A DNA stretch of 64,000 nucleotides from Streptomyces sp. WM6386. Lineage in GTDB: Bacteria; Actinomycetota; Actinomycetes; Streptomycetales; Streptomycetaceae. A program made the position numbers and the translations under genes. Under the pieces are notes generated by a model. That model was not told the DNA's origin. It saw only the letters and a program-made list of their open reading frames with translations, and searched no databases. The stretch lies in NCBI RefSeq assembly GCF_000972385.1, contig NZ_JXTE01000009.1, forward strand, positions 1 to 64,000, written 5' to 3'. Position 1 is the stretch's first letter. Each line of letters begins with the position of its first letter. Positions 1,149 to 46,003 of the stretch are shown here, piece by piece.

Positions 1149-2138
1149 CTACGGCACCACCACGATCTTCCTGCCCACCCCCGACGCGAATTGGTCCAGC
1201 GCCTCCGGATAGCGGTCGAGGGGGATGCGGTCGCTGATGAAGATCTCGGGGTCGAGGACGCCGTTGGCGAAGAGTTCCGCCGCTCGTTCGAAGCTGTGCA
1301 GGACCGCCATCGAGCCGGTGATCGTCAGCTCCTGGTTGTAGATGCGGTACGGGTCGATCGTCACGCGCGTCGCGTAGTCGGCCACGCCGAACTGGAGAAA
1401 CGTGCCCGCCTTCGCCACCCGCTCCAGCCCGTCCTGGATCGCCGCCGCGTTGCCCGTCGCGTCGACGACCACGTCCCAGCCCTGAGGGCGCTCGAGCTCG
1501 TCCGCGTTCGCCGCCGAGGACGAGACGCCCAGTCGGCGGGCCGTCTCCAGGCGGGACGGGTTCAGATCCACCACGTCCACACTCGCCGCACCCGTCCGCT
1601 TCGCAAGCTCCAGCATCATCAGCCCCATGGTTCCGGAGCCGTAGATCAGGACGTGGGCGCCCAGCCGGGACCGCAGGACGTCGTAGCCGCGTATCGCGCA
1701 CGACAGCGGTTCCACCAGGGCCGCGTCCTGTGTGCGGACATGTTCGGGGAGCCGCACGCAGTTCGCCACCGGGGCCACCGCGTACTGCGCCGCGCCGCCG
1801 GCCGTGGTCACACCGATCGCCGCCCAGCGTTCACAGAGGTTGTTGTGGCCCGTACGGCAGTAGCGGCACTCGTAGCAGTACAGGGACGGGTCCACCGCCA
1901 CCCGGTCGCCCACCGACAGTTCCGTCACCTGCCGGCCGACCCCCACCACCTCGCCCGCGAACTCGTGCCCCGGCACGATCGGCAGCTTCGGCGCGAACTC
2001 GCCCTGGAGGATGTGCAGGTCGGTGCCGCACAGCCCGCACGCGGCGACCTCGACGACGACCTCGCGCGGACCCGGCGTCGGGTCGGGGACCTCGGCGACG
2101 ACGGCACGGCCCACGGACTCGATGACGGCGGCCTTCAT
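1149..2138 (-). CDS. zinc-dependent alcohol/polyol dehydrogenase (MDR family)
   Basis: Medium-chain zinc dehydrogenase of 329 residues, about the usual length. The start at 2138 (MKAAVIESVGRAVV) is chosen because it overlaps the upstream permease stop by 4 bases; the longer open frame upstream is the shadow of that permease. Visible motifs are the catalytic-zinc CGLCGTD (about residue 36) and GHEFAGEVVGVG, the structural-zinc cysteine cluster YCYECRYCRTGHNNLC (about 88-103), and a Rossmann segment (YGSGTMGLMML). As last gene of a DeoR / binding protein / two permease operon it most likely oxidises the imported polyol (sorbitol, mannitol, arabitol or xylitol type) with NAD(P)+. The substrate is inferred from context only. 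Confidence 0.85.
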   Translation of the reverse strand: MKAAVIESVGRAVVAEVPDPTPGPREVVVEVAACGLCGTDLHILQGEFAPKLPIVPGHEFAGEVVGVGRQVTELSVGDRVAVDPSLYCYECRYCRTGHNNLCERWAAIGVTTAGGAAQYAVAPVANCVRLPEHVRTQDAALVEPLSCAIRGYDVLRSRLGAHVLIYGSGTMGLMMLELAKRTGAASVDVVDLNPSRLETARRLGVSSSAANADELERPQGWDVVVDATGNAAAIQDGLERVAKAGTFLQFGVADYATRVTIDPYRIYNQELTITGSMAVLHSFERAAELFANGVLDPEIFISDRIPLDRYPEALDQFASGVGRKIVVVP

Positions 2139-2971
2139 TTCACGGCTCCCAACGACAGACCCTGGACCAGCTTGTCCTGGGCGGCGAACCCCGCGGCGAG
2201 CACCGGCAGGGAGATGACGAGCGACGCGGCGCACACCTTCGCCAGGAACAGGCCCTGGCTGGTGATGAAGCCGGTCAGGAAGACGGGGGCGGTCTCCGCC
2301 ACCACGCCGGTCAGGACCCTCGCGAACAACAGCTCGTTCCAGCTGAAGATGAAGCAGATCAGCGCTGTCGCGGCGATTCCCGGGAGGGCGATCGGGGCCA
2401 CCACGCGCGCCAGGATCGTCGGGAGCCGCGCCCCGTCCACCCGGGCCGCCTCGATGATCGCCACCGGCACCTCGGCCAGGAACGACTGCATCATCCACAC
2501 CGCGATCGGCAGGTTCATGGAGGTGTAGAGGATGACCAGCAGCCAGATGTTGTCGAGCATGTCCGTGTTCTTGGCGAACAGATAGATGGGCAGCAGACCC
2601 GCCACCACCGGCAGCATCTTCGTCGACAGGAAGAAGAACAGGACGTCCGTCCACTTCTTCACCGGGCGGATCGACAGCGCGTACGCCGCCGGGAGCGCCA
2701 GGAGCAGGACGAAGGCCGTCGACGCCAGCGACGCCACCGACGAGTTGATCAGTGCCGGCCAGGGGCTCGCGCCGCCGCCCGTGCCGAAGAACTCGCGGTA
2801 GCCGTCCAGGGTGAGGGCGGCCCCGAAGGACGGCGGGTTGGTCGCCGCGTCCGCCTCCGAGTGGAAGGACGTCAGCGCCATCCACGCGATGGGGAGGAAG
2901 AACGCCACTCCCAGGAGCCAGGCCAGCAGGCCCAGGCCAACGCCCTTACGGCGTACGGTCATTGCACTCAT
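2135..2971 (-). CDS. sugar/polyol ABC transporter permease, MalG type
   Basis: Inner-membrane permease of 278 residues with about six membrane segments. The first is at residues 11-33 (GLGLLAWLLGVAFFLPIAWMA). The binding-protein-dependent transport loop that contacts the ATPase is present as EAARVDGARLPTILARVVAPIALPGI (about 176-202). The gene overlaps the dehydrogenase start by 4 bases and the MalF-type permease stop by 4 bases, so the two permeases are translationally coupled. No ATPase gene lies in the operon; such Streptomyces importers are known to share MsiK encoded elsewhere. It is related to sorbitol/mannitol (SmoG/MtlG-like) permeases. Confidence 0.87.
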   Translation of the reverse strand: MSAMTVRRKGVGLGLLAWLLGVAFFLPIAWMALTSFHSEADAATNPPSFGAALTLDGYREFFGTGGGASPWPALINSSVASLASTAFVLLLALPAAYALSIRPVKKWTDVLFFFLSTKMLPVVAGLLPIYLFAKNTDMLDNIWLLVILYTSMNLPIAVWMMQSFLAEVPVAIIEAARVDGARLPTILARVVAPIALPGIAATALICFIFSWNELLFARVLTGVVAETAPVFLTGFITSQGLFLAKVCAASLVISLPVLAAGFAAQDKLVQGLSLGAVK

Positions 2972-3906
2972 GCCCGACCCGCCTCCTCACGGAACAGGGA
3001 CGACACCACGCGCAGGGCGAAGGTCGCGATGATGATCGAGCCGATGACCACCAGGACGCCGGCGGCCGAGGCGAGGCCGTTCTCGTGGGCCTGGTAGAAG
3101 CTCTGGTAGACGGTGTAGGGGAGGTTGGCGGTGCCGAGGCCGCCCGATGTGATCGTGAAGACCGCGTCGAAGTTCTGGACGATGTAGATCGAGCCCAGCA
3201 GCGCGCCCAGCTCCAGATAGCGGCGCAGATGCGGGAGCGTCAGATGCCGGAAGATCTGCCAGTCGCTCGCGCCGTCCACCCGTGCTGCCTCGATCTGCTG
3301 GGAGTCGCGGCTCTGCAGGCCCGCCAGCAGGATCAGCATCATGAACGGCGTCCACTGCCAGACCAGGGAGGCCTCCACCGCCAGCAGCGGGGTGTTGGAG
3401 ATCCAGTCCGGCTGTGGGCCGCCCACATAGTGCAACAACCCATTGAGCAGACCGTATTCGGGGTTGTAGAGCACATGCTTCCAGAGCAGCGCCGCCGCCA
3501 CGGGGACGACGAGGAAGGGGGCGATCAGAAGGGTGCGGACCACGCCGCGCCCCTTGAACCGACGGTCCAGCAGGAGCGCCAGGGCCAGGCCGAGCACCAG
3601 GCTCACCAGGACCACCGTCGCCGTCAGCAGGACCGTCGTCCACACCGAATGGCGCAGGTCCGCGTCCGTGAGGACCTGTTGGTAGTTGTCGAAGCCCGTG
3701 AAGTGCCGGGCCTTCGGGTACAGGGCGTTCCAGTCGAAGAAGGAGATCACCAGCGTGGCCACGAACGGGAGCTGGGTGACCACGATCATGAAGATCAGGG
3801 CGGGCAGGAGCGGGGCCCGGGTGGCCCAGTTGCGCAGCCGGGCCGACGGTGGGCGGGCGGTGCGTACGGGAGTCGCGGCCACGGGGGCCGTCGTTGTCGC
3901 TGTCAT
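2968..3906 (-). CDS. sugar/polyol ABC transporter permease, MalF type
   Basis: Permease of 312 residues. The start at 3906 (MTATTTAPVAATPVRT) gives a 4-base overlap with the binding-protein stop; the longer frame upstream is a shadow. It has a cytoplasmic Pro/Arg-rich N-terminus, then six membrane spans from about residue 33 (LLPALIFMIVVTQLPFVATLVISFF). The EAA loop reads EAARVDGASDWQIFRHLTLPHLRRY, and the conserved W after the second span and the QNFDAVFTITSGG periplasmic block are typical of polyol/maltose permeases. It should pair with the MalG-type permease just downstream and receive substrate from the lipoprotein just upstream. Confidence 0.87.
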   Translation of the reverse strand: MTATTTAPVAATPVRTARPPSARLRNWATRAPLLPALIFMIVVTQLPFVATLVISFFDWNALYPKARHFTGFDNYQQVLTDADLRHSVWTTVLLTATVVLVSLVLGLALALLLDRRFKGRGVVRTLLIAPFLVVPVAAALLWKHVLYNPEYGLLNGLLHYVGGPQPDWISNTPLLAVEASLVWQWTPFMMLILLAGLQSRDSQQIEAARVDGASDWQIFRHLTLPHLRRYLELGALLGSIYIVQNFDAVFTITSGGLGTANLPYTVYQSFYQAHENGLASAAGVLVVIGSIIIATFALRVVSSLFREEAGRA

Positions 3907-5273
3907 CGTCCCTCGTACTCCTCGGAGATCTTCTCGGCGAGCCGCTGGGACTTCTCCAGGGCCGACTCGACGGACTGGCGTCCGGCGATGGCCGCGCTGA
4001 TCTCCTGGGAGACCTTGGTGCCGAGATCGGTGAACTCGGGGATGCCGACGAACTGGATGCCGGGCGCGGGGCGCGGCTGCACCCCCGGGTCGTTGGGCTG
4101 CGCGCCTTCGATGGCCTCCTTGGTCATCTCCTGGAAGGCGGCGGCCTCTTTGACGTACGCCGGATTCGTGTACGTCGACGCGCGTTTGCCGGCCGGGACG
4201 TTGGACCAGCCGATCTGGTCGCCGACCAGCTGTTCGTACTGCTTGCCGGAGGCCCAGGACACGAACTTCCAGGCCTTGTCGGGGTTGTGGGAGGCGTCCT
4301 GGATGCCCCAGGCCCAGGTGTAGAGCCAGCCGGAGGACTTCGTCTCCTCGACGGGGGCGGGGGCGTAGCCGACCTTGCCCTTGACGGGGGAGTCGTCCGC
4401 CTCCAGGGAACCGGCGGCGCTCGTGGCGTCGTACCACATGGCGACCTTGCCCTGGGTCATGTTGTTCAGGCACTCGGCGAAGCCGGACTGGGGCGCTCCC
4501 GACTCACCGTGCTCACGGACGAGGTCGACATAGAACTTCGTCGCCTTCTCCCACTCGGGGGAGTCGAGCCGGGCCTTCCAGTTCTGGTCGAACCAGGTGC
4601 CGCCGAAGGTGTTCACGACGGTCGTCAGGGGTGCCATCACCTCGCCCCAGCCCGGCAGTCCGCGCAGACAGATGCCCTTCATGCCGGGCTCGGCGCCGTC
4701 CACCTTCGCGGCCAGGTCGGCCACCTGGGTCCAGGTGGGGTGGGCCGGCATCGTCAGACCCGCGTTCGCGAAGACGTCCTTGCGGTACATCAGGAAGGAG
4801 GACTCGCCGTAGAAGGGCTGGCCGTAGAGCTTGCCGTCGTCGCCGGTCAGGGACTGGCGCATGGGCCCCAGGACGTCCTGTTCGTCGTACGCCTGGTCCT
4901 TGGCGACGTAGGAGTCCATCTCGTGCAGCCAGCCGTTGCGGGCGTAGATCGGGATCTCGTAGTTGGAGAGGGTGGCCACGTCGTACTGGCCCGCCTGGTT
5001 GGCGAAGTCCTGGCTGATCTTGTCGCGGACGTCGTTCTCGGGCAGGACGGTGAAGTTGACCTTGATGCCGGTCTCTTCGGTGAAGCGGGGGGCGAGTTTC
5101 TGCAACTCGGTCATCTGGGGGTTGTTGACCATGAGGACGTTGATCGAGTCGCCGCCCGCCCCCGCCCCGCCGGCTCCGACCCAGCAGCCGGAGAGCAGCG
5201 GGGTGAGCAGCGTCCCTGCGGCGGCCAGGGCGAGCGTGGCTCGCGGTGGCCGTCGTCGGCTCTGGGTTCGCAT
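3903..5273 (-). CDS. extracellular polyol/sugar-binding lipoprotein
   Basis: Family 1 solute-binding protein of 456 residues. It has a basic N-terminus, a hydrophobic stretch and the lipobox LLSGC (Cys at about residue 30), so it should be lipid-anchored outside the membrane. The mature part shows a typical sorbitol/mannitol-binding pattern (INVLMVNNPQMTELQKLAPRFTEETGIKV..., KISQDFANQAGQYDV, GQPFYGESSFLMYRKD, W in SGWLYTWAWGI). It is the first structural gene of the polyol operon, preceded by a 77-base gap from the DeoR regulator. Ligand specificity for a hexitol or pentitol is inferred from resemblance to SmoE-like proteins and from the dehydrogenase at the operon end. Confidence 0.85.
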   Translation of the reverse strand: MRTQSRRRPPRATLALAAAGTLLTPLLSGCWVGAGGAGAGGDSINVLMVNNPQMTELQKLAPRFTEETGIKVNFTVLPENDVRDKISQDFANQAGQYDVATLSNYEIPIYARNGWLHEMDSYVAKDQAYDEQDVLGPMRQSLTGDDGKLYGQPFYGESSFLMYRKDVFANAGLTMPAHPTWTQVADLAAKVDGAEPGMKGICLRGLPGWGEVMAPLTTVVNTFGGTWFDQNWKARLDSPEWEKATKFYVDLVREHGESGAPQSGFAECLNNMTQGKVAMWYDATSAAGSLEADDSPVKGKVGYAPAPVEETKSSGWLYTWAWGIQDASHNPDKAWKFVSWASGKQYEQLVGDQIGWSNVPAGKRASTYTNPAYVKEAAAFQEMTKEAIEGAQPNDPGVQPRPAPGIQFVGIPEFTDLGTKVSQEISAAIAGRQSVESALEKSQRLAEKISEEYEGR

Positions 5274-5350: not shown

Positions 5351-6118
5351 TCAGACGCGGATGACCTGAGGCCCGAGCAGTGAGTAGCGGTGGGCCTCGG
5401 ACGTGGGGAGCAGGGTGCTCGTGACGATCGTCTCCAGCGTGCCGATCTCCGCGAACCGGCAGAAGCTGACCGCCCCGAACTTGGTGTGGACACCCGCGAA
5501 CACCGTGCGACGCGCGGCCCGGATCGCCTGTGCCTTGACCTCGCTGACCGCGGGGTCGGGGGTGGTGAGGCCGTGTTCGCGGGAGATGCCGTTGGCGCCG
5601 ATGTAGGCGAGGTCGAGGACGAAGCCGGCGAGCATCTTCGTCGTCCAGTGGTCGACGGTGGCCAGGGTGCCGGAGCGGACCCGGCCCCCGAGCAGGAGGA
5701 CCGAGACGCCGTCCGCCTCGGCGAGGGCGCCCGCGACCGGGAGGGATGCGGTGACCACGGTCAGGGGGCGGTCCCGGGGCAGGGCCTCGGCGATGAGCTG
5801 TGGGGTGAAGCCCTCGTCGACGAAGACCGTCTCGGCGTCCCCGAGCAGCTCGGCCGCGGCGGTGGCGATGCGGCGCTTCTCGGGGACGTGGCTGGTGGCC
5901 CGGAAGGCGAGCGTCGTCTCGAAGCCGGCGCTCTCCACGGGGTAGGCGCCGCCGTGGGTGCGGCGGACCAGGCCGTGGTCCTCCAGGGCGCGGAGGTCTC
6001 GGCGGACGGTTTCTTTCGCGACGCCGAGTTGGGCGGCGAGCGTGTTGACGTCGACGGCGCCTGTGGTGCGGGCGGCGTGGACGATATGCCGCTGGCGGTC
6101 TTCCGCGGTGCCGGTCAT
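5351..6118 (-). CDS. DeoR/GlpR family transcriptional regulator
   Basis: DNA-binding regulator of 255 residues. The N-terminal winged HTH (about 5-60) contains the DeoR signature VAKETVRRDLRALEDHGLVRRTHGGAYP. The C-terminal DeoRC sensor domain has the family's effector-pocket segments (VFVDEGFTPQLIAEAL, VVTASLPVAGAL, LGGRVRSGTLATVD, IGANGISREHGLTTPD). Such domains bind phosphorylated sugars. It is the upstream gene of the polyol operon and reads in the same direction, so it is probably a local, autoregulated repressor of the transporter and dehydrogenase. The true inducer is unknown. Confidence 0.88.
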   Translation of the reverse strand: MTGTAEDRQRHIVHAARTTGAVDVNTLAAQLGVAKETVRRDLRALEDHGLVRRTHGGAYPVESAGFETTLAFRATSHVPEKRRIATAAAELLGDAETVFVDEGFTPQLIAEALPRDRPLTVVTASLPVAGALAEADGVSVLLLGGRVRSGTLATVDHWTTKMLAGFVLDLAYIGANGISREHGLTTPDPAVSEVKAQAIRAARRTVFAGVHTKFGAVSFCRFAEIGTLETIVTSTLLPTSEAHRYSLLGPQVIRV

Positions 6119-6428: not shown

Positions 6429-7238
6429 TCAGTACGGCCAGATCGGCGGATCGCTCACGAAGTGGCCGCCGAGGTGGGCGTGGGCGATGTTCTCCGGGTC
6501 CAGTTCGCCCTGCTCGGCGATGATCTTCTCGGCGTACTGCTCGGAGTCGTCCCGGGGGTCGTAGCCGATCGCCCGGGCCGTGCTGAGGTCCCACCACAGG
6601 CGGGTGTTGGCGGAGGAGCCGTAGACGACGGTGTGCTGGACGTCCTCGGCGGTCAGGGCCGCGTGGAAGAGGCGGGCGCCGTCGGCCGGGCTCATCCACA
6701 CCGACAGCATGCGGACGCTGCTGGGCTCGGGGAAGCAGGAGCCGATGCGTACCGACACGGTCTCCAGGGCGTGCTTGTCCCAGTAGAGCTGGGCAAGGTC
6801 CTCGCCGAAGGACTTGGACAGGCCGTAGAAGGTGTCCGGGCGGTGCGGGGTGTCGATCGGGATCAGGGGAGCGTCGCCCTGGGGGCGGGGGGTGAAGCCC
6901 ACCGCGTGGTTGGAGGAGGCGAAGACGATCCTCGGTACGCCCTCCTCGCGGGCGGTCTCGTACAGGTTGTAGGTGCCCTCGATGTTCGCCCTGAGGATCT
7001 TGTCGAAGGAGGCTTCCAGGGAGATGCCCGCGAGGTGGATGATCGCGTCGACACCCCGGACGGCCTCGCGCACGGCGTCCTTGTCGGCGAGGTCCGCGAC
7101 GATCGCGTCCGGTGCGCCCTCGACGGGGAGCAGGTCCAGGAGGCGCAGCTCGTAGCCGTACTCGGGGAGCAGGTCCCGCATCAGGGTGCCGAGCCCGCCG
7201 GCGGCGCCGGTGAGCAGTACGGTGCGGGGCGCTGGCAT
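6429..7238 (-). CDS. uronate dehydrogenase-like NAD-dependent epimerase/dehydratase family protein
   Basis: Short-chain (extended SDR) protein of 269 residues from the ATG at 7238 (MPAPRTVLLTGAAGG), chosen because AAGGAG lies about 10 bases upstream; a longer start at 7271 lacks an RBS. It has the Rossmann motif GAAGGLG (about 10-16), the DLAD and HLAGIS segments, and the catalytic YGLSK pair (about 137-141). Together with ASSNHAVGF and RIGSCFPEP blocks this closely resembles uronate dehydrogenase (EC 1.1.1.203), which oxidises D-galacturonate or D-glucuronate to the aldaro-lactone with NAD+. It is divergent from the KdgD-like dehydratase over 167 bases, which fits an oxidative uronate pathway fed by the pectinases downstream. 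Confidence 0.8.
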   Translation of the reverse strand: MPAPRTVLLTGAAGGLGTLMRDLLPEYGYELRLLDLLPVEGAPDAIVADLADKDAVREAVRGVDAIIHLAGISLEASFDKILRANIEGTYNLYETAREEGVPRIVFASSNHAVGFTPRPQGDAPLIPIDTPHRPDTFYGLSKSFGEDLAQLYWDKHALETVSVRIGSCFPEPSSVRMLSVWMSPADGARLFHAALTAEDVQHTVVYGSSANTRLWWDLSTARAIGYDPRDDSEQYAEKIIAEQGELDPENIAHAHLGGHFVSDPPIWPY

Positions 7239-7343
7239 CCTCGGTTCTCCTTGAGTCGACGGCCGTAACACTGCTCGGTATTCACATTCGTGGACAAGTT
7301 AAGGATCATCGGCACGCCTCGTCAAGGGTGGTGCTACGCATGT

Positions 7344-7367
7344 TCAGAAACGTAAACTCTGATCAGA
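7344..7367. promoter_or_regulatory. operator-like repeats between udh-like gene and kdgD
   Basis: The divergent 167-base region holds a perfect palindrome TCTGATCAGA (7358-7367) and another TCAGA half at 7344-7348, giving three TCAGA/TCTGA modules in 24 bases. The block ends about 38 bases before the kdgD start. It is a plausible site for a regulator controlling both genes. Which regulator binds is not shown by the sequence. Confidence 0.45.
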
Positions 7368-7405
7368 ATCCCGCACGCCTCTGTTTCTCGTTCTAGGGAG
7401 AGCCC

Positions 7406-8350
7406 GTGACGACTGCCGACCTCGCCACCCGACTCGGCATCCCCAGCGGGCCGCTGTTCTTCCCCGTCACCGCCTACGCCCCCGACGGCTCGGTCGACCT
7501 CGACGTCTACCGCGCCCATGTGCGCCGCGGGGTGGAGGCCGGGGCCGCCGCCGTCTTCGCGTGCTGCGGCACCGGGGAGTTCCACGCGCTGACGCCCGAG
7601 GAGTTCGAGGCGTGCGTGCGGGCGGCCGTGGAGGAGACGGCGGGACGTGTGCCGGTCGTCGCGGGCGCCGGGTACGGCACCGCGCTCGCCGTGCGGTACG
7701 CGAAGCTGGCCGAGGCGGCCGGCGCGGACGGGCTGCTCGCGCTGCCGCCGTACCTCGTGATCGCCGGGCAGGAGGGCCTGCTGCGGCACTACAAGGAGAT
7801 CGCGGCGGCCACCGCGCTGCCCGTCGTCGTCTACCAGCGCGACAACGCCGTGTTCACACCGCCGACCGTCGTCGAACTGGCCCGCACCGAAGGGATCGTC
7901 GGCCTCAAGGACGGGCTCGGCGACCTCGACCTCGTCCAGCGGATCGTCAGCGCCGTGCGCACCGAGGTCCCCGGCGACTTCCTCTACTTCAACGGCCTGC
8001 CGACCGCCGAACAGACCCAGCTCGCCTACCGCGCGGTCGGCGTCCCGCTCTACTCCTCCGCCGTGTTCTGCTTCGCCCCCGAGATCGCCCTCGCCTTCCA
8101 CGGGGCGCTCGAGTCGGACGACTCGCGGACGGCCGACCGTCTCCTGGACGGCTTCTACCGCCCGTTCGTCGAGCTGCGCGCCCAGGGCCGCGGCTACGCC
8201 GTCGCCCTGGTCAAGGCCGGTGTACGGCTGCGCGGGCTCGACGTGGGGGAGGTCCGGCCACCGCTGCACGAGCCCACCGAGGATCATGTGAAGCAGCTCG
8301 CCCAGATCATCGAGCGTGGATACGCGCTGCTGGAGGAGGACACCAAGTGA
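7406..8350 (+). CDS. kdgD: 5-dehydro-4-deoxyglucarate dehydratase
   Basis: DapA-superfamily TIM-barrel lyase of 314 residues that should dehydrate and decarboxylate 5-keto-4-deoxy-D-glucarate to alpha-ketoglutarate semialdehyde (EC 4.2.1.41). It has the family's N-terminal FFPVTAY and GTGEFHALTPEEF segments, the VYQRDN segment with the barrel Tyr, and the Schiff-base lysine in GIVGLKDGLGD (about residue 172). The RBS AGGGAGA precedes the ATG. It shares a divergent promoter with the uronate dehydrogenase-like gene and overlaps the next gene by 4 bases (GTGA). Length and motifs match characterised KdgD proteins better than dihydrodipicolinate synthase. Confidence 0.88.
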   Translation: MTTADLATRLGIPSGPLFFPVTAYAPDGSVDLDVYRAHVRRGVEAGAAAVFACCGTGEFHALTPEEFEACVRAAVEETAGRVPVVAGAGYGTALAVRYAKLAEAAGADGLLALPPYLVIAGQEGLLRHYKEIAAATALPVVVYQRDNAVFTPPTVVELARTEGIVGLKDGLGDLDLVQRIVSAVRTEVPGDFLYFNGLPTAEQTQLAYRAVGVPLYSSAVFCFAPEIALAFHGALESDDSRTADRLLDGFYRPFVELRAQGRGYAVALVKAGVRLRGLDVGEVRPPLHEPTEDHVKQLAQIIERGYALLEEDTK

Positions 8351-9510
8351 AGGCGTCGACATTCGTCTACCCCTGGGACGTCAACGGGGACCCAGAGGCG
8401 GCCGCGCGCATCGCCTCCCTCGGTGTGGGCCAGGTGACGCTCGCCTCCGCGTACCATTCCACGCGCGCGCTGACGCCCCGCCACCCGCGCCACCGCATCG
8501 TCACCGCCGAGCACGCGTCCGTGCTCTACCCCACCGACGACCGCTGGCAGGGACGGGAGTTGCGCCCGTACCCGGCCGGCGACTGGGCGCCCGGCGACGC
8601 GTTCGGCGAGGCGGCCACCGCGCTGACGCGGGCCGGCCTGGAGGTGCACACCTGGGTGGTCCTCGCCCACAACTCCCGCCTGGGCGCCGAACATCCGGAC
8701 ACCTCGGTCGTCAACGCCTACGGCGACCGCTACCCCTGGGCTCCCTGTATCGCCCAGCCCGCCACGCGCGCGTACCTCGTCGACCTGGCTGCCGAGGCCG
8801 CGGTGCGCCCGGGCGCGCGCGGCACCGAACTGGAGTCCCTCGGCTGGTACGGCCTCCAGCATCTGCACGCCCACGACAAGACCGGCGGGGTCGGCCTCGG
8901 GGACGCCGGGATGTATCTGATGGCGCTCTGCTTCTGTGCGGTCTGCCGGGAGGGCTACGCCGCCCAGGGCCTGGATGCCGACGAACTGGCGGCCGCGGTA
9001 CGGGACGCGCTGGAGCCGCTGTGGCAGGGGGCGCCGGACGACCGGGAGTGGGCGGGTGTCGAGAAGCTCCTGGGTGCCTCGGTGGCGGCGGCCACGCGCG
9101 CGTGGCGCGACGAGACCGCCCGCACCCTCCAGGAGGCGGCGGTCGGGGCGGTGCGCGCGGCGGCTCCCGACGGTTTCCAGATCCTGCTGCACGCCGACCC
9201 GGTGACGTATCACGTCGGCGCCAACCCGGGCGTGGACCCCGCGCACATCCTCTCCGTGGCGGACGGCGTGGTGGTGCCGTGCGCGGGCGGACCGGGCCTG
9301 CTGACGCCGTTCGCCGAGCAGGGCCGCGAGGATGCGGTGATCGCCGCCAACTTCGGCGTGGTCTCCGGGATGGGCGGCAGCCCCGGCACGCTCGCGGCGG
9401 ACGCGGCACGCGCGCGTGAGCTCGGCGCCACCGAAATGCGGCTCTATCACGCCGGATTGGCGTCGGACGGCGACCTGGCGGCGGTGCGCGCGGCTCTCGC
9501 CGGCCGCTGA
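8347..9510 (+). CDS. uncharacterised protein translationally coupled to kdgD, 387 aa
   Basis: I do not recognise a characterised family. The GTG at 8347 overlaps the kdgD stop, so it is coupled to that gene. The protein has no signal peptide or membrane span. It reads like an alpha/beta barrel: TFVYPWDVNGDPEAAARIASLGV at the start, HTWVVLAHNSRLG (about 102), LESLGWYGLQHLHAHDK (about 160), then CFCAVCREGY (about 197), a Cys-X-Cys-X-X-Cys cluster like the metal or structural cysteines of some barrel glycoside hydrolases, and ILLHADPV near the C-terminal half. An enzyme acting on a uronate, its lactone or an oligouronide is possible. The role is inferred only from its neighbours. Confidence 0.75.
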   Translation: MKASTFVYPWDVNGDPEAAARIASLGVGQVTLASAYHSTRALTPRHPRHRIVTAEHASVLYPTDDRWQGRELRPYPAGDWAPGDAFGEAATALTRAGLEVHTWVVLAHNSRLGAEHPDTSVVNAYGDRYPWAPCIAQPATRAYLVDLAAEAAVRPGARGTELESLGWYGLQHLHAHDKTGGVGLGDAGMYLMALCFCAVCREGYAAQGLDADELAAAVRDALEPLWQGAPDDREWAGVEKLLGASVAAATRAWRDETARTLQEAAVGAVRAAAPDGFQILLHADPVTYHVGANPGVDPAHILSVADGVVVPCAGGPGLLTPFAEQGREDAVIAANFGVVSGMGGSPGTLAADAARARELGATEMRLYHAGLASDGDLAAVRAALAGR

Positions 9511-11184: not shown

Positions 11185-11853
11185 ATGACCTCTGTGCCCA
11201 CGCCGATCCCCTCCCGCACGCAGTACGTGCTCGAGGAGATCAAACGCCGCATCCTCACCGGCCAGCTGACGCCGGGGCAGGCTCTGGTCGAGACCGAGCT
11301 CGCCGCGCAGTTCGGGGTGTCCAAGACCCCGGTGCGCGAGGCGCTCAAGACCCTGGCCGGCACCGGGCTCGTCGTGATGAACCAGTACAAGGGCGTCACG
11401 GTGCGCATGGTGGACGCGGACATGGCGCGCGAGGTCTACGACGTCCGGCTGCTCCTCGAACCCGAGGCCCTGAAGCGGGCCGTCAAGCGCGGCGCCTCCC
11501 TCGACGAGGCCCGTGACGCGCTGACCCGGGCCGACCAGGCCACCGACACCGCCGAACGCTCCCTCGCCAACCGGGAGTTCCACCGGTCCCTGTATCTGCC
11601 GTGCGGCAACCCGCTGCTCGGCCGGATGCTCGACGAGGTCCGGGACCAGGCGGCCCTCGTCTCCGCCGTCGCCTGGGCGGCCTCGCCCTCCTGGGAGCGG
11701 GAGGCCGGTGAGCACCGGGAGATCCTGCGGCTCGCCCTCGACGGTGACGCCGACGGCGCGGCCCGCGCCCTCCACGCGCACATCGCGTCGTTCGTGCAAC
11801 GGGCCTTCCCGGACGCGGAGTCCGAGGCCCAGGGAGAGGACGGTCAGGCATGA
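11185..11853 (+). CDS. GntR family regulator with FCD domain
   Basis: Regulator of 222 residues. The N-terminal winged HTH (about 10-75) contains YVLEEIKRRILTGQLTPGQ, ETELAAQFGVSKTPVREALKTLAG and GLVVMNQYKGVTV, typical of the GntR family. The all-helical FCD ligand domain follows, with metal-type residues in REVYDVRLLLEP, NREFHRSLY and GEHREIL (His residues at about 133 and 184). FadR/FCD members usually sense organic or sugar acids. It is first in a run with a DapA-family and an IlvD/Edd dehydratase (next start overlaps its stop by 4 bases). It therefore probably controls the sugar-acid operon and perhaps the transporter downstream. Confidence 0.87.
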   Translation: MTSVPTPIPSRTQYVLEEIKRRILTGQLTPGQALVETELAAQFGVSKTPVREALKTLAGTGLVVMNQYKGVTVRMVDADMAREVYDVRLLLEPEALKRAVKRGASLDEARDALTRADQATDTAERSLANREFHRSLYLPCGNPLLGRMLDEVRDQAALVSAVAWAASPSWEREAGEHREILRLALDGDADGAARALHAHIASFVQRAFPDAESEAQGEDGQA

Positions 11854-12758
11854 CAGCGACGTTCGAGACCCAACGGGCGGCCCTGGCCGACGTGGTGGCG
11901 ATCCCGGTGACACCGTTCGCCGAGGACGGCACCGTCGACCAGGACACCCACCGGGCCCTGCTGCGTCGTCTCCTCGACGGTGGGGTCACGACCCTCACCC
12001 CCAACGGGAACACCGGCGAGTTCTACGCCCTGACCCCCCAGGAGCGCCGGCTCGTCACCGAGCTGACGATCGACGAGGCCGGCGACCGTGCCGTGATCCT
12101 CGTCGGCGTCGGCCACGACGTGCCCACCGCCGTCGCCTCCGCACGGCACGCCCGTGAGCTGGGCGCGGCGATGGTGATGGTCCACCAGCCCGTCCATCCG
12201 TACGTCTCCCAGGGCGGCTGGGTCGACTACCACCGCGCCATCGCCGAGGCCGTGCCCGAGCTGGGCGTCGTGCCGTACATCCGTAACGCGCAGCTCAGCG
12301 GGGCTCGGCTCGCCGAACTCGCCGACGCCTGCCCGAACGTCATCGGGGTGAAGTACGCCGTCCCGGACGCGGCGAGATTCGCCGCCTTCGCCCGGGACGC
12401 GGGACTCGAACGCTTCGTGTGGGTCGCCGGCCTCGCCGAGCCCTACGCCCCCTCGTACTTCTCCGCGGGCGCCACCGGCTTCACCTCCGGACTCGTGAAC
12501 GTCGCCCCGGCCGTTTCGCTGAACATGATCGAAGCGCTGCGATCCGGTGACTACCCGGCCGCCATGAAGGTCTGGGAGCAGATCCGCCGCTTCGAGGAAC
12601 TCCGCGCCGCCAACGGCTCCGCCAACAACGTCACCATCGTCAAGGAGGCCCTCGCCTCCCTCGGACTGTGCCGCCGCGAGGTGCGTCCGCCGAGCCGGCC
12701 GCTGCCCGAGGACGAGCGGGCCGAGGTCGCCGGGATAGCCGCCGGGTGGTCGATATGA
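11850..12758 (+). CDS. dihydrodipicolinate synthase family lyase (probable 2-keto-3-deoxy-pentonate dehydratase)
   Basis: DapA-family barrel of 302 residues. It has the entry loop VAIPVTPFAEDGTVD, the phosphate/carboxylate loop GNTGEFYALT (about 50-59), a PYIRN segment holding the conserved Tyr (about 141), and the Schiff-base lysine in VIGVKYAVPD (about 168). It overlaps the GntR gene by 4 bases and the IlvD/Edd gene by 4 bases. Next to a pentonate/hexonate dehydratase, the likely reaction is dehydration of 2-keto-3-deoxy-L-arabinonate to alpha-ketoglutarate semialdehyde. An aldolase acting on a 2-keto-3-deoxy acid is the main alternative. It is clearly distinct from the KdgD at 7.4 kb. Confidence 0.8.
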   Translation: MTATFETQRAALADVVAIPVTPFAEDGTVDQDTHRALLRRLLDGGVTTLTPNGNTGEFYALTPQERRLVTELTIDEAGDRAVILVGVGHDVPTAVASARHARELGAAMVMVHQPVHPYVSQGGWVDYHRAIAEAVPELGVVPYIRNAQLSGARLAELADACPNVIGVKYAVPDAARFAAFARDAGLERFVWVAGLAEPYAPSYFSAGATGFTSGLVNVAPAVSLNMIEALRSGDYPAAMKVWEQIRRFEELRAANGSANNVTIVKEALASLGLCRREVRPPSRPLPEDERAEVAGIAAGWSI

Positions 12759-14491
12759 CCGACAGAGAACGCAAACGCCCCGAGGAGCTGCGGAGCCACC
12801 AGTGGTACGGCACCGAGGGCCAGTTGCGCACCTGGTCGCACAACGCCCGGATGCGCCAGCTGGGTTACGAGGCGGAGGAGTACCGGGGCCGCCCGGTGAT
12901 CGCCGTCCTCAACACCTGGTCCGACATCAACCCCTGCCACGTCCATCTGCGCGAGCGCGCCGAGGCGGTCAAGCGGGGCGTGTGGCAGGCCGGGGGCTTC
13001 CCACTCGAGTTCCCGGTCGCCACGCTCTCGGAGACGTACCAGAAGCCGACCCCGATGCTCTACCGCAACCTCCTCGCGATGGAGACGGAGGAGCTGCTGC
13101 GGTCGTACCCGATCGACGCGGCGGTGCTGCTCGGCGGCTGCGACAAGTCGACGCCGGCGCTGCTCATGGGCGCTGCCTCGGCCGACGTGCCGTCGCTCTT
13201 CGTGCCCGCGGGGCCGATGCTGCCGGGGCACTGGCGCGGGGAGACCCTCGGGTCCGGCACCGACATGTGGAAGTACTGGGACGAGCATCGCGCGGGCAAT
13301 CTGACGGACTGCGAACTCCGCGAGCTCCAGGGCGGGTTGGCGCGTTCACCCGGTCACTGCATGACCATGGGCACCGCGTCCACGATGACCGCTGCGGCGG
13401 AGGTCCTCGGCATGACACTGCCGGGTGCCTCCTCGATCCCGGCCGTCGAGTCCGGGCACGAGCGGATGGCCGCCGCCTCCGGGCGCCGTGCCGTGGAGCT
13501 CGCCTGGACCGCCCTCAAGCCGTCGGAGATCCTCACCCGGGAGGCCTTCGAGGACGCCGTCACCACGGTGCTCGGACTCGGCGGCTCCACCAACGCCGTG
13601 ATCCACCTGATCGCGATGGCGGGCCGGTCCGGGATCAAGCTCGCCCTCGACGACTTCGACCGCATCGCCCGTACCGTCCCGGTGCTGGCGAACGTACGGC
13701 CCGGCGGACAGACGTACCTCATGGAGGACTTCTACTTCGCCGGTGGCCTGCCCGCCTTCCTCACACGGATCACCGACCTGCTGCATCTGGACCGGCCGAC
13801 CGTCAACGGCACGCTGGGAGAGCAGCTCGAAGGTGCCGTCGTGCACAACGACGACGTCATCCGCACCCGCGAGAACCCGGTCGCCGGCGAGGGCGGTGTC
13901 GCCGTCCTGCGCGGCAACCTCTGCCCGGACGGCGCGGTCATCAAGCACATCTCCGCCGAGCCGCACCTGCTCAAGCACACCGGTCCCGCGGTCGTCTTCG
14001 ACGACTACAGGACCATGCAGCGGACCATCAACGACCCGTCGCTGAACATCACCGCCGACAGTGTGGTGGTGCTGCGCAACGCCGGGCCCAAGGGCGGTCC
14101 GGGCATGCCCGAGTACGGCATGCTGCCCATCCCCGACCACCTGCTCAAGCAGGGGGTGCGGGACATGGTCCGGATCTCCGACGCCCGGATGAGCGGCACG
14201 AGTTACGGCGCGTGTGTGCTGCACGTCGCGCCCGAGTCGTACATCGGCGGACCGCTCGCCCTCGTCCGCAGCGGTGACCGGATCACCCTGGACGTCGAGG
14301 CGCGCTCCCTCCATCTCCACGTGGACGACGAGGAGTTGGAGCGCCGCAGGGCGCAGTGGACGCCGCCGCCCGTCCGTTACGAGCGAGGCTACGGCGCGCT
14401 CTACAACGAGCAGATCACGCAGGCCGACACCGGCTGCGACTTCGAGTTCCTGGCCCGCCCGGGCAAGGGGAGCGACCCGTACGCCGGCTGA
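12755..14491 (+). CDS. IlvD/Edd family sugar-acid dehydratase (L-arabonate dehydratase type)
   Basis: Fe-S dehydratase of 578 residues, the length of pentonate/hexonate members of IlvD/Edd. The ATG at 12755 overlaps the preceding stop. Cluster-ligand cysteines are visible in INPCHVH (about 57), GGCDKSTPA (about 127) and PGHCMTMGTAST (about 199). The catalytic Ser region is RMSGTSYGACVLH (about 479-491). Motifs favour sugar-acid dehydratases (L-arabonate, D-xylonate, D-galactonate) over dihydroxy-acid dehydratase, and the neighbouring DapA-family gene supports a non-phosphorylative pentose or sugar-acid route. Dehydration of galactarate cannot be excluded and would fill a gap in the uronate route. 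Confidence 0.82.
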   Translation: MTDRERKRPEELRSHQWYGTEGQLRTWSHNARMRQLGYEAEEYRGRPVIAVLNTWSDINPCHVHLRERAEAVKRGVWQAGGFPLEFPVATLSETYQKPTPMLYRNLLAMETEELLRSYPIDAAVLLGGCDKSTPALLMGAASADVPSLFVPAGPMLPGHWRGETLGSGTDMWKYWDEHRAGNLTDCELRELQGGLARSPGHCMTMGTASTMTAAAEVLGMTLPGASSIPAVESGHERMAAASGRRAVELAWTALKPSEILTREAFEDAVTTVLGLGGSTNAVIHLIAMAGRSGIKLALDDFDRIARTVPVLANVRPGGQTYLMEDFYFAGGLPAFLTRITDLLHLDRPTVNGTLGEQLEGAVVHNDDVIRTRENPVAGEGGVAVLRGNLCPDGAVIKHISAEPHLLKHTGPAVVFDDYRTMQRTINDPSLNITADSVVVLRNAGPKGGPGMPEYGMLPIPDHLLKQGVRDMVRISDARMSGTSYGACVLHVAPESYIGGPLALVRSGDRITLDVEARSLHLHVDDEELERRRAQWTPPPVRYERGYGALYNEQITQADTGCDFEFLARPGKGSDPYAG

Positions 14492-20138: not shown

Positions 20139-21646
20139 CCGCCTCCGGGACATATACGAACCCGATCCTGAACGCCGACTGGTCCGACCCGGACGTCCTG
20201 CGCGTCGGCGACGACTTCTACCTCACCGCCTCCAGCTTCGGCCGCGCCCCCGGCCTGCCGCTGCTGCACTCCCGCGACCTCGTCAGCTGGACCCTGGTCG
20301 GCCACGCACTCCAACGCCTGGAGCCCGCGGCCGAGTTCAAGGCCCCCCGGCACGACTGCGGCGTCTGGGCCCCGTCGTTGCGCCACCACGACGACCGGTT
20401 CTGGATCTTCTGGGGCGACCCCGACCAGGGCATCTTCCAGATCAACGCCCCCGAGATCAGGGGACCTTGGTCCCGCCCGCACCTCCTCAAGGCCGGCAAG
20501 GGCCTGATCGACGCCTGCCCCCTGTGGGACGACGAGAGCGGCGAGGCCTACCTGGTGCACGCCTGGGCCAAGTCCCGCTCCGGCGTCAAGAACCGGCTCA
20601 CCGGCCACCGGATGCACCCCGACGGCACCGAACTCCTCGACGACGGCAAGCTCATCGTCGACGGCGACCGGATACCCGGCTGGTTCACCCTGGAGGGCCC
20701 CAAGCTCTACCGGCACGACGGCTGGTTCTGGATCCTCGCCCCCGCCGGGGGAGTGGAGACCGGCTGGCAGGGCGCCTTCCGCTCACGCGAGTTCTTCGGG
20801 CCGTACGAGGAGCGGATCGTCCTTGAGCAGAAGGACACCGACGTCAACGGCCCCCACCAGGGCGGCTGGGTGCGCACCCCGTCCGGTGAGGACTGGTTCC
20901 TGCACTTCCAGCAGAAGGGCGCCTACGGCAGGGTCGTCCACCTCCAGCCGATGCGCTGGGGTGACGACGGCTGGCCGGTGCTCGGGGACGAAGGCTCCCC
21001 CGTCGCCGTACACACCAAGCCCGACCTGCCGCCGCAGCCGCCCGCAGCGCCCGCCACCGACGACGACTTCCCCGGCGGACGCTTCGGCCGCCAGTGGAGC
21101 TGGACCGCCAACCCGAGGGACGGCTGGGCCACCCACCACTCCGGCGACGGCCTCCGCCTCACCTGCGTCCGCTCGGCCGACGCGCACGACCTGCGCAGAC
21201 TGCCGAACGTCCTCACCCAGCGGCTGCCCGGCACGCCCTGCGCCGTCGAGGTGGAGCTGCGCCTGGACAGCGAGGATCCGGGGGCGCGGGCCGGGCTCGC
21301 GGTCCTCGGGGACGCGTTCGGCTGGATCGGGCTCCAGCGGGACGAGGACGGGACTGTGCGGGTCGTGCACCGGTTCGCCGAGGCGGTCGCCGAGCGGGAG
21401 CGCGACGCCGCCCATCCCGTGATCGCCCCCGAGGGACGGGTACGGCTGCGGATCGAGATCGGCGCCGGGGCGCGCTGCCGCTTCTTCCACGACGTCGGCG
21501 ACGGCCCGCGTCCGTCCGGTCCCGTCTTCGCGGCCACGCCGTGGCGCTGGGTCGGCGCTCTGCTCGGTCTCGTCGCCCTCGCGCCCGCCGGACAAGGTCA
21601 CGCCGGCGCGGCAACCTTCACGAAGTTCAGGATCGACCAGCTGTAG
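20135..21646 (+). CDS. GH43 family glycoside hydrolase (beta-xylosidase/arabinofuranosidase type)
   Basis: Protein of 503 residues from a GTG overlapping the upstream stop. The N-terminal five-bladed propeller (about 5-300) has the catalytic base in NADWSDPDVLRVGDDFY (about 13-30), the pKa-modulating Asp region LIDACPLWDD, and the acid in TLEGPKLY (about 189). A C-terminal beta-sandwich (about 315-503) matches the XynB-type accessory domain that shapes the active-site cleft. It lacks a signal peptide, so it probably acts inside the cell on imported oligosaccharides. Substrates could be arabino- or xylo-oligosaccharides from pectin side chains. It forms an operon with PmoA-like and Gfo/Idh genes. 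Confidence 0.87.
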   Translation: MTASGTYTNPILNADWSDPDVLRVGDDFYLTASSFGRAPGLPLLHSRDLVSWTLVGHALQRLEPAAEFKAPRHDCGVWAPSLRHHDDRFWIFWGDPDQGIFQINAPEIRGPWSRPHLLKAGKGLIDACPLWDDESGEAYLVHAWAKSRSGVKNRLTGHRMHPDGTELLDDGKLIVDGDRIPGWFTLEGPKLYRHDGWFWILAPAGGVETGWQGAFRSREFFGPYEERIVLEQKDTDVNGPHQGGWVRTPSGEDWFLHFQQKGAYGRVVHLQPMRWGDDGWPVLGDEGSPVAVHTKPDLPPQPPAAPATDDDFPGGRFGRQWSWTANPRDGWATHHSGDGLRLTCVRSADAHDLRRLPNVLTQRLPGTPCAVEVELRLDSEDPGARAGLAVLGDAFGWIGLQRDEDGTVRVVHRFAEAVAERERDAAHPVIAPEGRVRLRIEIGAGARCRFFHDVGDGPRPSGPVFAATPWRWVGALLGLVALAPAGQGHAGAATFTKFRIDQL

Positions 21647-21681
21647 CACACCTCATTCTTGTACGCCTGTTGGGAGCCGCA

Positions 21682-28610: not shown

Positions 28611-29639
28611 ATGCGCAGACGCACCCTTCTCGCCGCGGCTACGGGCCTGTTCGCGGCGGGAGCCGCCACGCCGGCCCTCGCCACCGGTGCCCGCCGGGTC
28701 CTGCACGTCCGCCCCGGCGACTCCGTCCAGGCGGCCGTGGACGCGGTGGACGGCCCGGGCTGGACGATCGTCGTGCACCCGGGGACGTACCGCGAGGTCG
28801 TCGACGTGCCCGCCGACAAGGCCGAGTTGACCCTGCGCGGTGCCTCCTGCGACCCCCGCGACGCCGTGATCGTCCACAACAACGCCAACGGCACGCCGAA
28901 GCCCGACGGTTCGGGCACCTACGGCACCGCGGGCTCCGCCACCTTCACCTCCGCCGCCCCCGGTCTGACCGTCCGTGACCTGACCCTCGCCAACGACTGG
29001 CTGCGCGCCGACCACCCCGACTACACCGGCACCCAGGCGGTGGCCTCGTACACCTACGGCGACCGCACCCACTTCGACAACGTCCGGCTGCTCGCCCACC
29101 AGGACACCCTGTTCGTCGAGACGACCGCGCTCACCTCCTTCGACCGGCAGTACTTCCACCGCTGCTACATCGAGGGCGACGTCGACTTCGTCTTCGGCCG
29201 GGCCACCGCCGTCTTCGAGGAGTGCCACTTCCACACCCTCCAGCGGGACGTCGCCTTCACCCCGAAGGGCATGGTCTTCGCCCCGTCCACCGCCCGCGCC
29301 AACCCCTACGGCATCCTCGCTCTGCGCTCCCGCATCACCTCGGGCGCCGAGGACGCGGCGTACAAGCTGGCCCGGCCGTGGGTCCCGTCGTACGAGACGA
29401 CCGCCTGGCCGTCCCTCGTCGTGCGGGACACCCGGATCGGGCCCGGCATCGACCCCGTCGCGCCCTACACCAACATGCGGGAGGCGTATCCCTGGCAGAC
29501 CATGCGGTTTCGGGAGTACCGCAACTCCGGCCCCGGCGCGGTGATCCCGGTGCCGGAGAACAGGCCTCAACTGACCCGGGACCAGGCCGAGTCGCACACC
29601 AAGGCCACGTATCTCGGCGACTGGCGGCCCCGTGCCTGA
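28611..29639 (+). CDS. secreted pectinesterase, CE8 family (second of tandem pair)
   Basis: Pectin methylesterase of 342 residues, starting MRRRTLLAAATGLFAAGAA with a Tat-like or Sec signal that ends near ALA (about residue 24). It has AHQDTLF (about 162), IEGDVDFVFGRA (about 186) and LARPWVPS (about 251), so all active-site positions are kept. It is shorter than its upstream neighbour at the N-terminus but aligns along the whole core, including the unusual NANGTPKPDGSGTYGT segment shared with NAAGTPKPDGSGTYGT. Only one base separates the two genes, so they are cotranscribed. Confidence 0.9.
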   Translation: MRRRTLLAAATGLFAAGAATPALATGARRVLHVRPGDSVQAAVDAVDGPGWTIVVHPGTYREVVDVPADKAELTLRGASCDPRDAVIVHNNANGTPKPDGSGTYGTAGSATFTSAAPGLTVRDLTLANDWLRADHPDYTGTQAVASYTYGDRTHFDNVRLLAHQDTLFVETTALTSFDRQYFHRCYIEGDVDFVFGRATAVFEECHFHTLQRDVAFTPKGMVFAPSTARANPYGILALRSRITSGAEDAAYKLARPWVPSYETTAWPSLVVRDTRIGPGIDPVAPYTNMREAYPWQTMRFREYRNSGPGAVIPVPENRPQLTRDQAESHTKATYLGDWRPRA

Positions 29640-29680
29640 GCGCTCCGCCGGACACGCGGTTCGTTCGCCGCGGGCCGGTG

Positions 29681-29719
29681 GGGGCCGGCCGCGCAGTTCC
29701 CCGCGCCCCTTGCGGGGCA
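29681..29719. repeat. dispersed short repeat at the 5' edge of the truncated lyase
   Basis: GGGGCCGGCCGCGCAGTTCC then CCGCGCCCCTTGCGGGGCA, matching 6301-6336 and 25128-25157. It lies just upstream of the possible GTG start of the shortened pectate lyase gene and may have displaced the original 5' region. Confidence 0.7.
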
Positions 29720-29721
29720 CG

Positions 29722-45922: not shown

Positions 45923-46003
45923 AGATATTCACCATCAGAGACAGCGTTCAGCATATCGAACGAGCCTGGTGGATGACCTAGGAACTGTGTGGAGGGACCC
46001 GCG

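What the first reader, a model, noticed from the sequence alone, without database searches (positions are those of the whole stretch)
8347..9510. Uncharacterised 387-residue protein coupled to kdgD, with a C-x-C-x-x-C cluster
The GTG overlaps the kdgD stop, so it is tied to the uronate-to-semialdehyde route, yet the family is unknown to me. The barrel-like pattern and CFCAVC cluster recall barrel glycosidases with metal-binding cysteines. The known pathway has an unfilled step between the uronate dehydrogenase lactone product and the KdgD substrate; this protein is one candidate, another being a hydrolase that frees uronic acid from oligomers.
Basis: partly seen in the sequence, partly recalled or inferred. 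Interest (0 to 1): 0.72.

Follow-up and report, generated by a model that had tools for sequence, protein, structure and literature searches.

The report
Unnamed barrel enzyme beside uronate dehydrogenase
A soil bacterium's pectin-eating gene cluster carries an uncharacterised sugar-enzyme-shaped protein that sits, in nearly all sampled Streptomyces that carry it, next to the enzyme that oxidises pectin's acidic sugar, so it is probably a missing part of that pathway, although its exact reaction is not known.

Summary
Window 8347-9510 (+) encodes a 387-aa protein (X) whose GTG overlaps the kdgD stop by 4 nt. No Pfam, NCBIfam or PDB sequence match was found. X is a predicted (β/α)8 barrel (pLDDT 83.6) closest to Cwp19 (GHL10), PgaB and GH42. 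Its CxCxxC plus an upstream Cys repeats the order of the GH42 zinc site.

The linkage is real but wider than kdgD. In 150 Streptomyces genomes X lies within 4 kb of udh in 110 of the 114 that have X, and of kdgD in 106. Six keep X (one a remnant) beside udh with no kdgD nearby.

First-reader idea 1 (X makes the KdgD substrate from the lactone) is weakened. In three loci X shares the cluster with a glucarate-dehydratase-like gene. Five of five genomes checked that lack that type encode another glucarate dehydratase. The galactarate branch stays open. Idea 2 (uronide hydrolase) survives, but both canonical GH-A catalytic carboxylates seem absent.

My best guess is an enzyme that opens or isomerises the aldarolactone made by UDH (0.36), closely rivalled by a cytoplasmic uronide glycosidase (0.32). 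The family also occurs in rhizobia, haloarchaea and Alicyclobacillus.

The parts
8347..9510 (+). X: 387-aa unnamed TIM-barrel protein (GTG start), downstream gene of the kdgD-X pair
8746..8748 (+). codon of Cys134, first cysteine of the putative Cys4 metal site
   Evidence: 37 of 38 relatives (the other has a gap)
8929..8946 (+). C195-F-C197-A-V-C200, the CxCxxC of the putative Cys4 metal site
   Evidence: each Cys 38 of 38; same order as the GH42 zinc site (PMC8573354 passages)
8833..8835 (+). codon of Glu163, the only carboxylate of those tabulated that is invariant in 38 of 38 relatives, at the end of predicted strand 4
8668..8670 (+). codon of His108, invariant; W103-x4-H108 has the spacing of Trp127-x4-Arg132 of Cwp19
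7406..8350 (+). kdgD, 5-dehydro-4-deoxyglucarate dehydratase (NF002958 438.6 bits, cut-off 278; below the TIGR03249 cut-off; nearest PDB 4ur7)
6429..7271 (-). udh, uronate dehydrogenase, divergent from kdgD (PDB 6mfh, 3ay3 and 3rft, E down to 1.9e-73)
5351..6118 (-). DeoR-family regulator
   Evidence: found in 73 of 80 loci (some loci end early)
3903..5273 (-). ABC sugar solute-binding protein
   Evidence: found in 70 of 80 loci (some loci end early)
2135..3900 (-). two ABC permease genes, named from translation and neighbours (no family search run on them); start of the second approximate
1149..2147 (-). zinc-binding alcohol dehydrogenase of the same cluster
11185..14491 (+). GntR regulator, DHDPS/KdgD-like enzyme and L-arabinonate-dehydratase-type IlvD; nearby, probably the arabinose arm
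   Evidence: GntR and IlvD in 75 of 80 loci

Best explanation
X is a cytoplasmic (no hydrophobic N-terminus), probably zinc-stabilised (β/α)8-barrel enzyme. It is a fixed third part of the Streptomyces uronate-oxidation module (udh, kdgD, X). I think it most likely acts on the product of UDH: it opens, or moves, the aldaro-lactone so that the free aldarate reaches a glucarate-type dehydratase (in the same locus in a few species, elsewhere in the genome in others), after which KdgD makes 2-oxoglutarate semialdehyde. Shown: gene, conserved linkage, family, conserved residues. Predicted: fold. Inferred: cytoplasmic place, zinc, the reaction and the roles of Glu163, His37, His108 and His176.
For: X and udh occur together: 113 genomes have both, 1 has X only, 14 have udh only (two of these with weak udh matches), 22 have neither, of 150. 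X starts within 4 kb of udh in 110 of 114; of the 107 genomes with udh and KdgD within 4 kb, 105 have X (or a remnant) nearby. X persists beside udh where no KdgD-family gene was found genome-wide at E<=1e-50 (G468, and diverged X' in G440 and G466). X coexists with a GlucD-like gene in one locus (G441 L140, G405 L186; truncated call in G494 L188), as expected for a step between dehydrogenase and dehydratase. A dehydratase is available in the own genome and in five of five genomes chosen for lacking the other candidates. In G441 and G494 the operon's transporter is a sodium:solute symporter, which (recalled) usually carries small molecules, so a cytoplasmic oligosaccharide hydrolase is less needed there. 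Distant homologues also sit with an SDR dehydrogenase and an MR_MLE gene in Haloarcula and Haladaptatus. A lactone isomerase (Gli) and lactonases (UxuL, UxuF) are known for this step in other bacteria (PMC6353982 passages).
Against: No activity data. The top fold matches are glycosidase-type barrels, with old-yellow-enzyme reductases further down (ranks 32, 41, 43, 50); no lactonase is among the rows shown. In G405 X' lies with KdgD and GlucD but not near udh. In G440 and G466 a DHDPS2-type gene stands beside udh and could replace KdgD. A paralogue lies with two 2-hydroxyacid dehydrogenases and an MR_MLE gene (L190), and rhizobial relatives lie in an amino-acid-like context with no gene annotated as uronate dehydrogenase in the stretch. 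The usual Streptomyces locus also has an ABC importer, which suits oligomers. Aldarolactones can open without enzyme (recalled). His176 and Lys178 lie in the one segment of pLDDT<50 (175-180).
Confidence: 0.36

Rival explanations
1. X is a cytoplasmic glycosidase-type enzyme that frees uronic acid (saturated or 4,5-unsaturated) from small imported uronides before UDH oxidises it.
For: Closest folds are Cwp19, PgaB, fucosidase 6tvk and GH42 barrels, with GH156 lower. An ABC importer lies in the locus (binding protein found in 70 of 80). Uronide-producing lyases lie close: PF00544, PF03211 and rhamnogalacturonan-lyase genes in the window, PL8 beside G441 and G494, heparinase II/III genes beside the Halomontanus relative. 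Haloarchaeal relatives lie near DUF1343 with NagZ and GH18 or with anhydro-MurNAc kinase.
Against: By a weak sequence alignment the acid position of Cwp19 (Asp196) is Ser, Ala, Thr or Gly in X (S31 A5 T1 G1 of 38), and no conserved carboxylate is seen in the strand-7 region. G441 and G494 use a symporter. G405 has X' with KdgD and GlucD but not near udh.
Confidence: 0.32
2. One reading: X converts the UDH lactone (or galactarate) directly into the KdgD substrate, as Gci does in Agrobacterium.
For: The udh / kdgD-X module of the usual locus has no Gci or GarD gene; the own genome has no PF04295 (GarD-type) match. GlucD-type enzymes would not cover galactarate (recalled), the main pectin product.
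Against: X stands beside a GlucD-like gene in three loci, one a truncated call. X is kept with udh where no KdgD-family gene was found (G440, G466, G468). All five genomes tested have a TIGR03247-type GlucD. No enolase-superfamily Pfam match for X.
Confidence: 0.12
3. X acts on unsaturated uronate or dehydrates galacturonate, giving 5-keto-4-deoxy-uronate, which UDH then oxidises straight to the KdgD substrate (a dehydratase-free shortcut).
For: Chemically this would give the KdgD substrate with only udh, X and kdgD. Lyase genes surround the locus. Galacturonate dehydratases have been reported elsewhere (PMC6353982 passage).
Against: UDH enzymes, including one from S. viridochromogenes, are described as oxidising uronic acids to lactones (PMC4476818 abstract and passages); use of the keto-deoxy sugar is untested. 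A GlucD-like gene in the G441 operon would then be superfluous.
Confidence: 0.1
4. X has another role (a different sugar-acid reaction shared with paralogues, or binding or regulation).
For: Distant relatives sit in unrelated sugar-acid, amino-acid-like and murein-like clusters, and one haloarchaeal copy (L103) in none of these.
Against: Nine of the tabulated residues are invariant in 38 of 38 relatives, which suggests one shared chemistry; linkage to udh is strong.
Confidence: 0.1

Closest known systems
GHL10 family (PF02638), Cwp19 of Clostridioides difficile (PDB 5oq2, 5oq3)
   Different: X gives no GHL10 hit at E<=1. His108 lies where GHL10 has Arg132, and Ser164 where Cwp19 has Asp196. 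Cwp19 has a signal peptide and acts on peptidoglycan (PMC5765458 passages; title of PMC6016235); X has no hydrophobic N-terminus.
GH42 beta-galactosidases (1kwg) and the GH42 arabinopyranosidase 5xb7
   Different: No NE motif, no strand-7 Glu seen, no room for the trimer and C domains (387 aa).
GH156 exosialidase (6s04) and PgaB C-terminal domain (4p7l)
   Different: Residue equivalence not established; GH156's Asp14 has no invariant counterpart (Asp11 of X is Asp in 31 of 38).
Galactarolactone enzymes: Gci (enolase superfamily), Gli (amidohydrolase), UxuL and UxuF lactonases
   Same: Same place in the pathway proposed here.
   Different: X matches no enolase-superfamily or amidohydrolase Pfam model at E<=1; UxuL and UxuF sequences were not at hand.

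Membership tests
GHL10 (PF02638) | score above Pfam's gathering cut-off | tested here: not met
   X: 0 families at E<=1. 24 of 63 members of A3 match at E<=0.1, best 1.1e-5. One distant relative (P0269) carries PF02638 in the database.
GHL10 (PF02638) | TIM barrel of the Cwp19 type | tested here: met
GHL10 (PF02638) | conserved Arg132 and Asp196 (Cwp19 numbers) | tested here: not met
   by the HMMER alignment and spacing these are His108 and Ser164; the alignment is weak and could be off by one at the strand end
GH42 | catalytic Glu pair (NE at strand 4, Glu at strand 7) | tested here: inconclusive
   no conserved Glu at those positions in the MAFFT alignments; no residue-level structural superposition was available
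GH42 | Cys4 zinc cluster (not universal in GH42) | tested here: met
   C134 37 of 38; C195, C197 and C200 38 of 38, same order as PMC8573354; metal not shown
Galactarolactone cycloisomerase (Gci) | enolase-superfamily domains (MR_MLE) | tested here: not met
   no such Pfam hit; that Gci is an enolase-superfamily enzyme is recalled
Galactaro-delta-lactone isomerase (Gli) | amidohydrolase-superfamily domain | tested here: not met
   no amidohydrolase Pfam hit; that Gli is an amidohydrolase is from a reference title seen
UxuL / UxuF lactonases | their fold and metal site | not tested
   sequences not fetched; the paper is not held
Functional udh-kdgD module | genomic linkage with udh and kdgD | tested here: met
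   110 of 114 and 106 of 114

The most novel reading that the evidence does not exclude
X founds a new enzyme family: a glycosidase-shaped, Cys4-metal barrel that has lost both classical catalytic carboxylates and uses Glu163 with a histidine cluster to open or rearrange sugar-acid lactones. It would be a further, non-homologous solution to the step after uronate dehydrogenase, fixed in Streptomyces and used on other sugar acids in rhizobia, haloarchaea and Bacilli.
Probability: 0.27. Interest if true: 0.7.

Novelty: new variant of a known kind. Interest (0 to 1): 0.55.

Why it matters
The oxidative uronate pathway is of interest for turning pectin waste into aldaric acids and 2-oxoglutarate, and Streptomyces are major plant-litter degraders (recalled). 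A previously unnamed protein found beside udh and kdgD in 105 of the 107 genomes of the sample in which those two are neighbours is likely a real pathway enzyme, and one growth test (monomer versus oligomer) would separate its main readings. The family also occurs in archaea and several bacterial phyla with no function assigned in the records seen, apart from a few 'glycoside hydrolase' labels on haloarchaeal copies.

Tried and rejected
Chance ORF or wrong start: rejected.

X as the only possible dehydratase: rejected as the general answer by loci holding both X and a GlucD-like gene, and by the five-genome test. That test used 5 of the 6 genomes with X, udh and KdgD but neither the C767-type GlucD (E<=1e-90) nor IlvD (E<=1e-200); G461 was left out because its X copy contains a stop. 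Two of the five also carry PF00920 genes beyond one (G454 three, G403 two), so another dehydratase of that kind is possible there.

IlvD as the universal missing dehydratase: IlvD (E<=1e-200) is in 93 of 114 X genomes, so it is not universal.

X linked only to kdgD: rejected. Places were typed for 110 of the 116 KdgD-bearing genomes; the other six have no X.

Among the 114 X genomes some copies are broken or remnants as printed (G480 and G502 fragments; G450 and G461 one TAG; G430, G474 and G507 split), and G405, G440 and G466 have only diverged copies (42-44%); all were counted as X present.

The fold rows shown name no lactonase; that absence is not evidence, since only Foldseek's top chains were re-aligned. 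A GH88/GH105 or KduI/KduD route in the own genome was not tested; none appeared among the part of the window's ORFs that was scanned.

Literature: no listed title or abstract opening in searches points to this protein (open-access library only; most listed papers were not opened). Bouvier 2018 is not held.

Full report
WHAT IS THERE. The ORF at 8347-9510 (+) starts with GTG, overlaps the kdgD stop by 4 nt and encodes 387 aa with CFCAVC at residues 195-200. kdgD (7406-8350) matches NF002958 at 438.6 bits (cut-off 278) and PDB 4ur7 at E 6.9e-66, though it is below the TIGR03249 KdgD cut-off. The divergent gene at 6429-7271 (-) is a uronate dehydrogenase by its PDB matches (6mfh, 3ay3, 3rft). A uronate dehydrogenase of S. 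viridochromogenes DSM 40736 has been assayed (PMC4476818, abstract and passages). I did not compare its sequence, but the locus L004 from another S. viridochromogenes strain has a UDH 88% identical to the window's.

SURROUNDINGS. Behind udh lie a DeoR regulator, an ABC binding protein, two permease genes and a zinc-type alcohol dehydrogenase. Downstream are GntR, a DHDPS-like gene and an L-arabinonate-dehydratase-type IlvD. Further along are pectate lyases (PF00544 at 16745, within 21094-23664, and at 26008; PF03211 at 38966), pectinesterases, GH43 enzymes and a rhamnogalacturonan lyase. The window holds a pectin-use locus. X has no hydrophobic N-terminus, so it is probably cytoplasmic.

FAMILY. 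X has no Pfam or NCBIfam hit at E<=1 and no PDB sequence hit at E<=10. It has 2700 relatives at E<=1e-3 among 7999 scored; the 120 listed carry no Pfam domain, and those with a name are 'hypothetical' or 'Alanine-rich'. Tblastn on plasmids found 151 records with relatives, each best place below 60% identity: 113 Rhizobium, the rest haloarchaea, Shinella, Aureimonas, Alicyclobacillus and others. In 38 diverse members Y36, H37, W103, H108, E163, H176, C195, C197 and C200 are invariant; C134 and Y367 are in 37. Twelve Streptomyces rows, X included, form a 100/100 clade inside a 100/100 clade with the G466, G440 and G405 copies and the Streptomyces paralogues (the G405 and Haloarcula rows are long and their placement is unsure; genomic neighbours of the four P rows in that clade were not looked at).

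LINKAGE. In the 80 best loci (79 titled Streptomyces, one Actinobacteria bacterium; ranked by similarity, so a biased set) kdgD is upstream in 80, udh is found in 78, the exact 4-nt overlap is kept in 65 and the start position is GTG in 75 (one search found udh in 79 at its looser coverage rule). No constant gene follows X. In an even sample of 150 Streptomyces genomes X is in 114, udh in 127 at E<=1e-40, KdgD-family in 116 at E<=1e-50, IlvD in 94 at E<=1e-200 and the C767-type GlucD in 98 at E<=1e-90. X versus udh: 113 both, 1 X only (contig edge, G422), 14 udh only (G425 and G479 with weak udh matches), 22 neither. X versus KdgD-family: 109, 5, 7, 29 (the Fisher p values there ignore shared ancestry). 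X starts within 4 kb of udh in 110 of 114 and of KdgD in 106 of 114; udh and KdgD are within 4 kb in 107 genomes, and only two of these (G437, G457) lack X nearby. Broken and diverged copies are counted as X.

WHAT THE EXCEPTIONS SAY. Of the 14 genomes with udh and no X, 12 neighbourhoods were fetched; 11 show no kdgD near udh and G457 has both. G398, G440, G466, G468 and G478 keep X or X' beside udh without kdgD nearby; in G440 and G466 a DHDPS2-type gene follows udh. G441 has X divergent from udh-KdgD-GlucD-like-symporter-PL8 lyase; G494 has the same layout with a truncated GlucD-like call; G405 has KdgD, a GlucD-like gene and X' side by side without udh nearby. So X is not simply a replacement for the dehydratase.

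IS THE DEHYDRATASE STEP REALLY UNFILLED? The own genome has a second KdgD (52%) next to a GlucD-like enzyme on contig C767 and no GarD-type gene. Nineteen genomes with X, udh and KdgD lack that GlucD type, and six of these also lack IlvD. Five of the six were searched (G461 left out, broken X): all have several MR_MLE genes (6 to 14 matches) and no GarD type, and each carries a TIGR03247-type glucarate dehydratase (L156 at 777 bits, below the 828.7 cut-off on an N-terminally cut sequence; the other four 69-84% identical to it). Glucarate can therefore be dehydrated without X. Galactarate, the pectin product, is not known (recalled) to be a GlucD substrate, so that gap stays open.

MECHANISM. 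UDH makes a lactone (PMC4476818, PMC6353982 passages). A gene that follows udh somewhat more closely than kdgD, coexists with a dehydratase and recurs beside SDR and MR_MLE genes in two haloarchaea fits an enzyme between dehydrogenase and dehydratase, that is lactone opening or isomerisation. The fold, the ABC importer and the surrounding lyases fit a uronide-releasing enzyme. I put the first slightly ahead (0.36 to 0.32). The reaction is inference in both cases.

OTHER CONTEXTS. Rhizobial and Aureimonas copies lie near an amino acid deaminase or alanine racemase, an amidohydrolase and ABC transporters, the two Rhizobium ones also near RidA. Three haloarchaeal copies lie near creatininase, with anhydro-MurNAc kinase, DUF1343, NagZ, GH18, MR_MLE or SDR genes in varying sets; a fourth lies near heparinase II/III and GH20 genes and a fifth among unrelated genes. 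The Alicyclobacillus copy lies near KDGP aldolase, xylulokinase and creatininase. A Streptomyces paralogue lies with an ABC importer, two 2-hydroxyacid dehydrogenases and an MR_MLE gene (G510); G410 looks alike by eye from gene starts only. These suggest small acid-sugar substrates in general rather than pectin alone.

Noticed in passing
window 16745-39802: Large pectin-degradation set: PF00544 pectate lyases, a PF03211 pectate lyase, pectinesterases, GH43 enzymes, a rhamnogalacturonan lyase and a GDSL esterase.
   Followed up: partly
window 29632-31531: Two neighbouring predicted proteins (287 and 349 aa) inside the pectin set gave no Pfam or NCBIfam hit at the limits used.
   Followed up: no
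window 45989-47533: Aldehyde dehydrogenase beside an IclR-like gene, a candidate for 2-oxoglutarate semialdehyde oxidation; all named-family scores are far below their cut-offs.
   Followed up: partly
L121 (own genome C767) 6583-8820: A second KdgD and a glucarate-dehydratase-like enzyme, probably a separate glucarate pathway.
   Followed up: yes
L100, L102 (Halorussus, Haladaptatus plasmids): Relatives of X in haloarchaeal clusters with anhydro-MurNAc kinase and DUF1343 (and NagZ and GH18 in L100): a murein-scavenging look in archaea, which lack murein (recalled).
   Followed up: no
L140 and L188 (G441, G494): udh-KdgD-GlucD-like-symporter clusters ending in a PL8 lyase, suggesting use of a uronate polysaccharide other than pectin.
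   Followed up: partly
L138, L139 (G502, G480): Decayed copies of X beside udh (internal deletion; C-terminal remnant with kdgD gone), so the module is being lost in some lineages.
   Followed up: no
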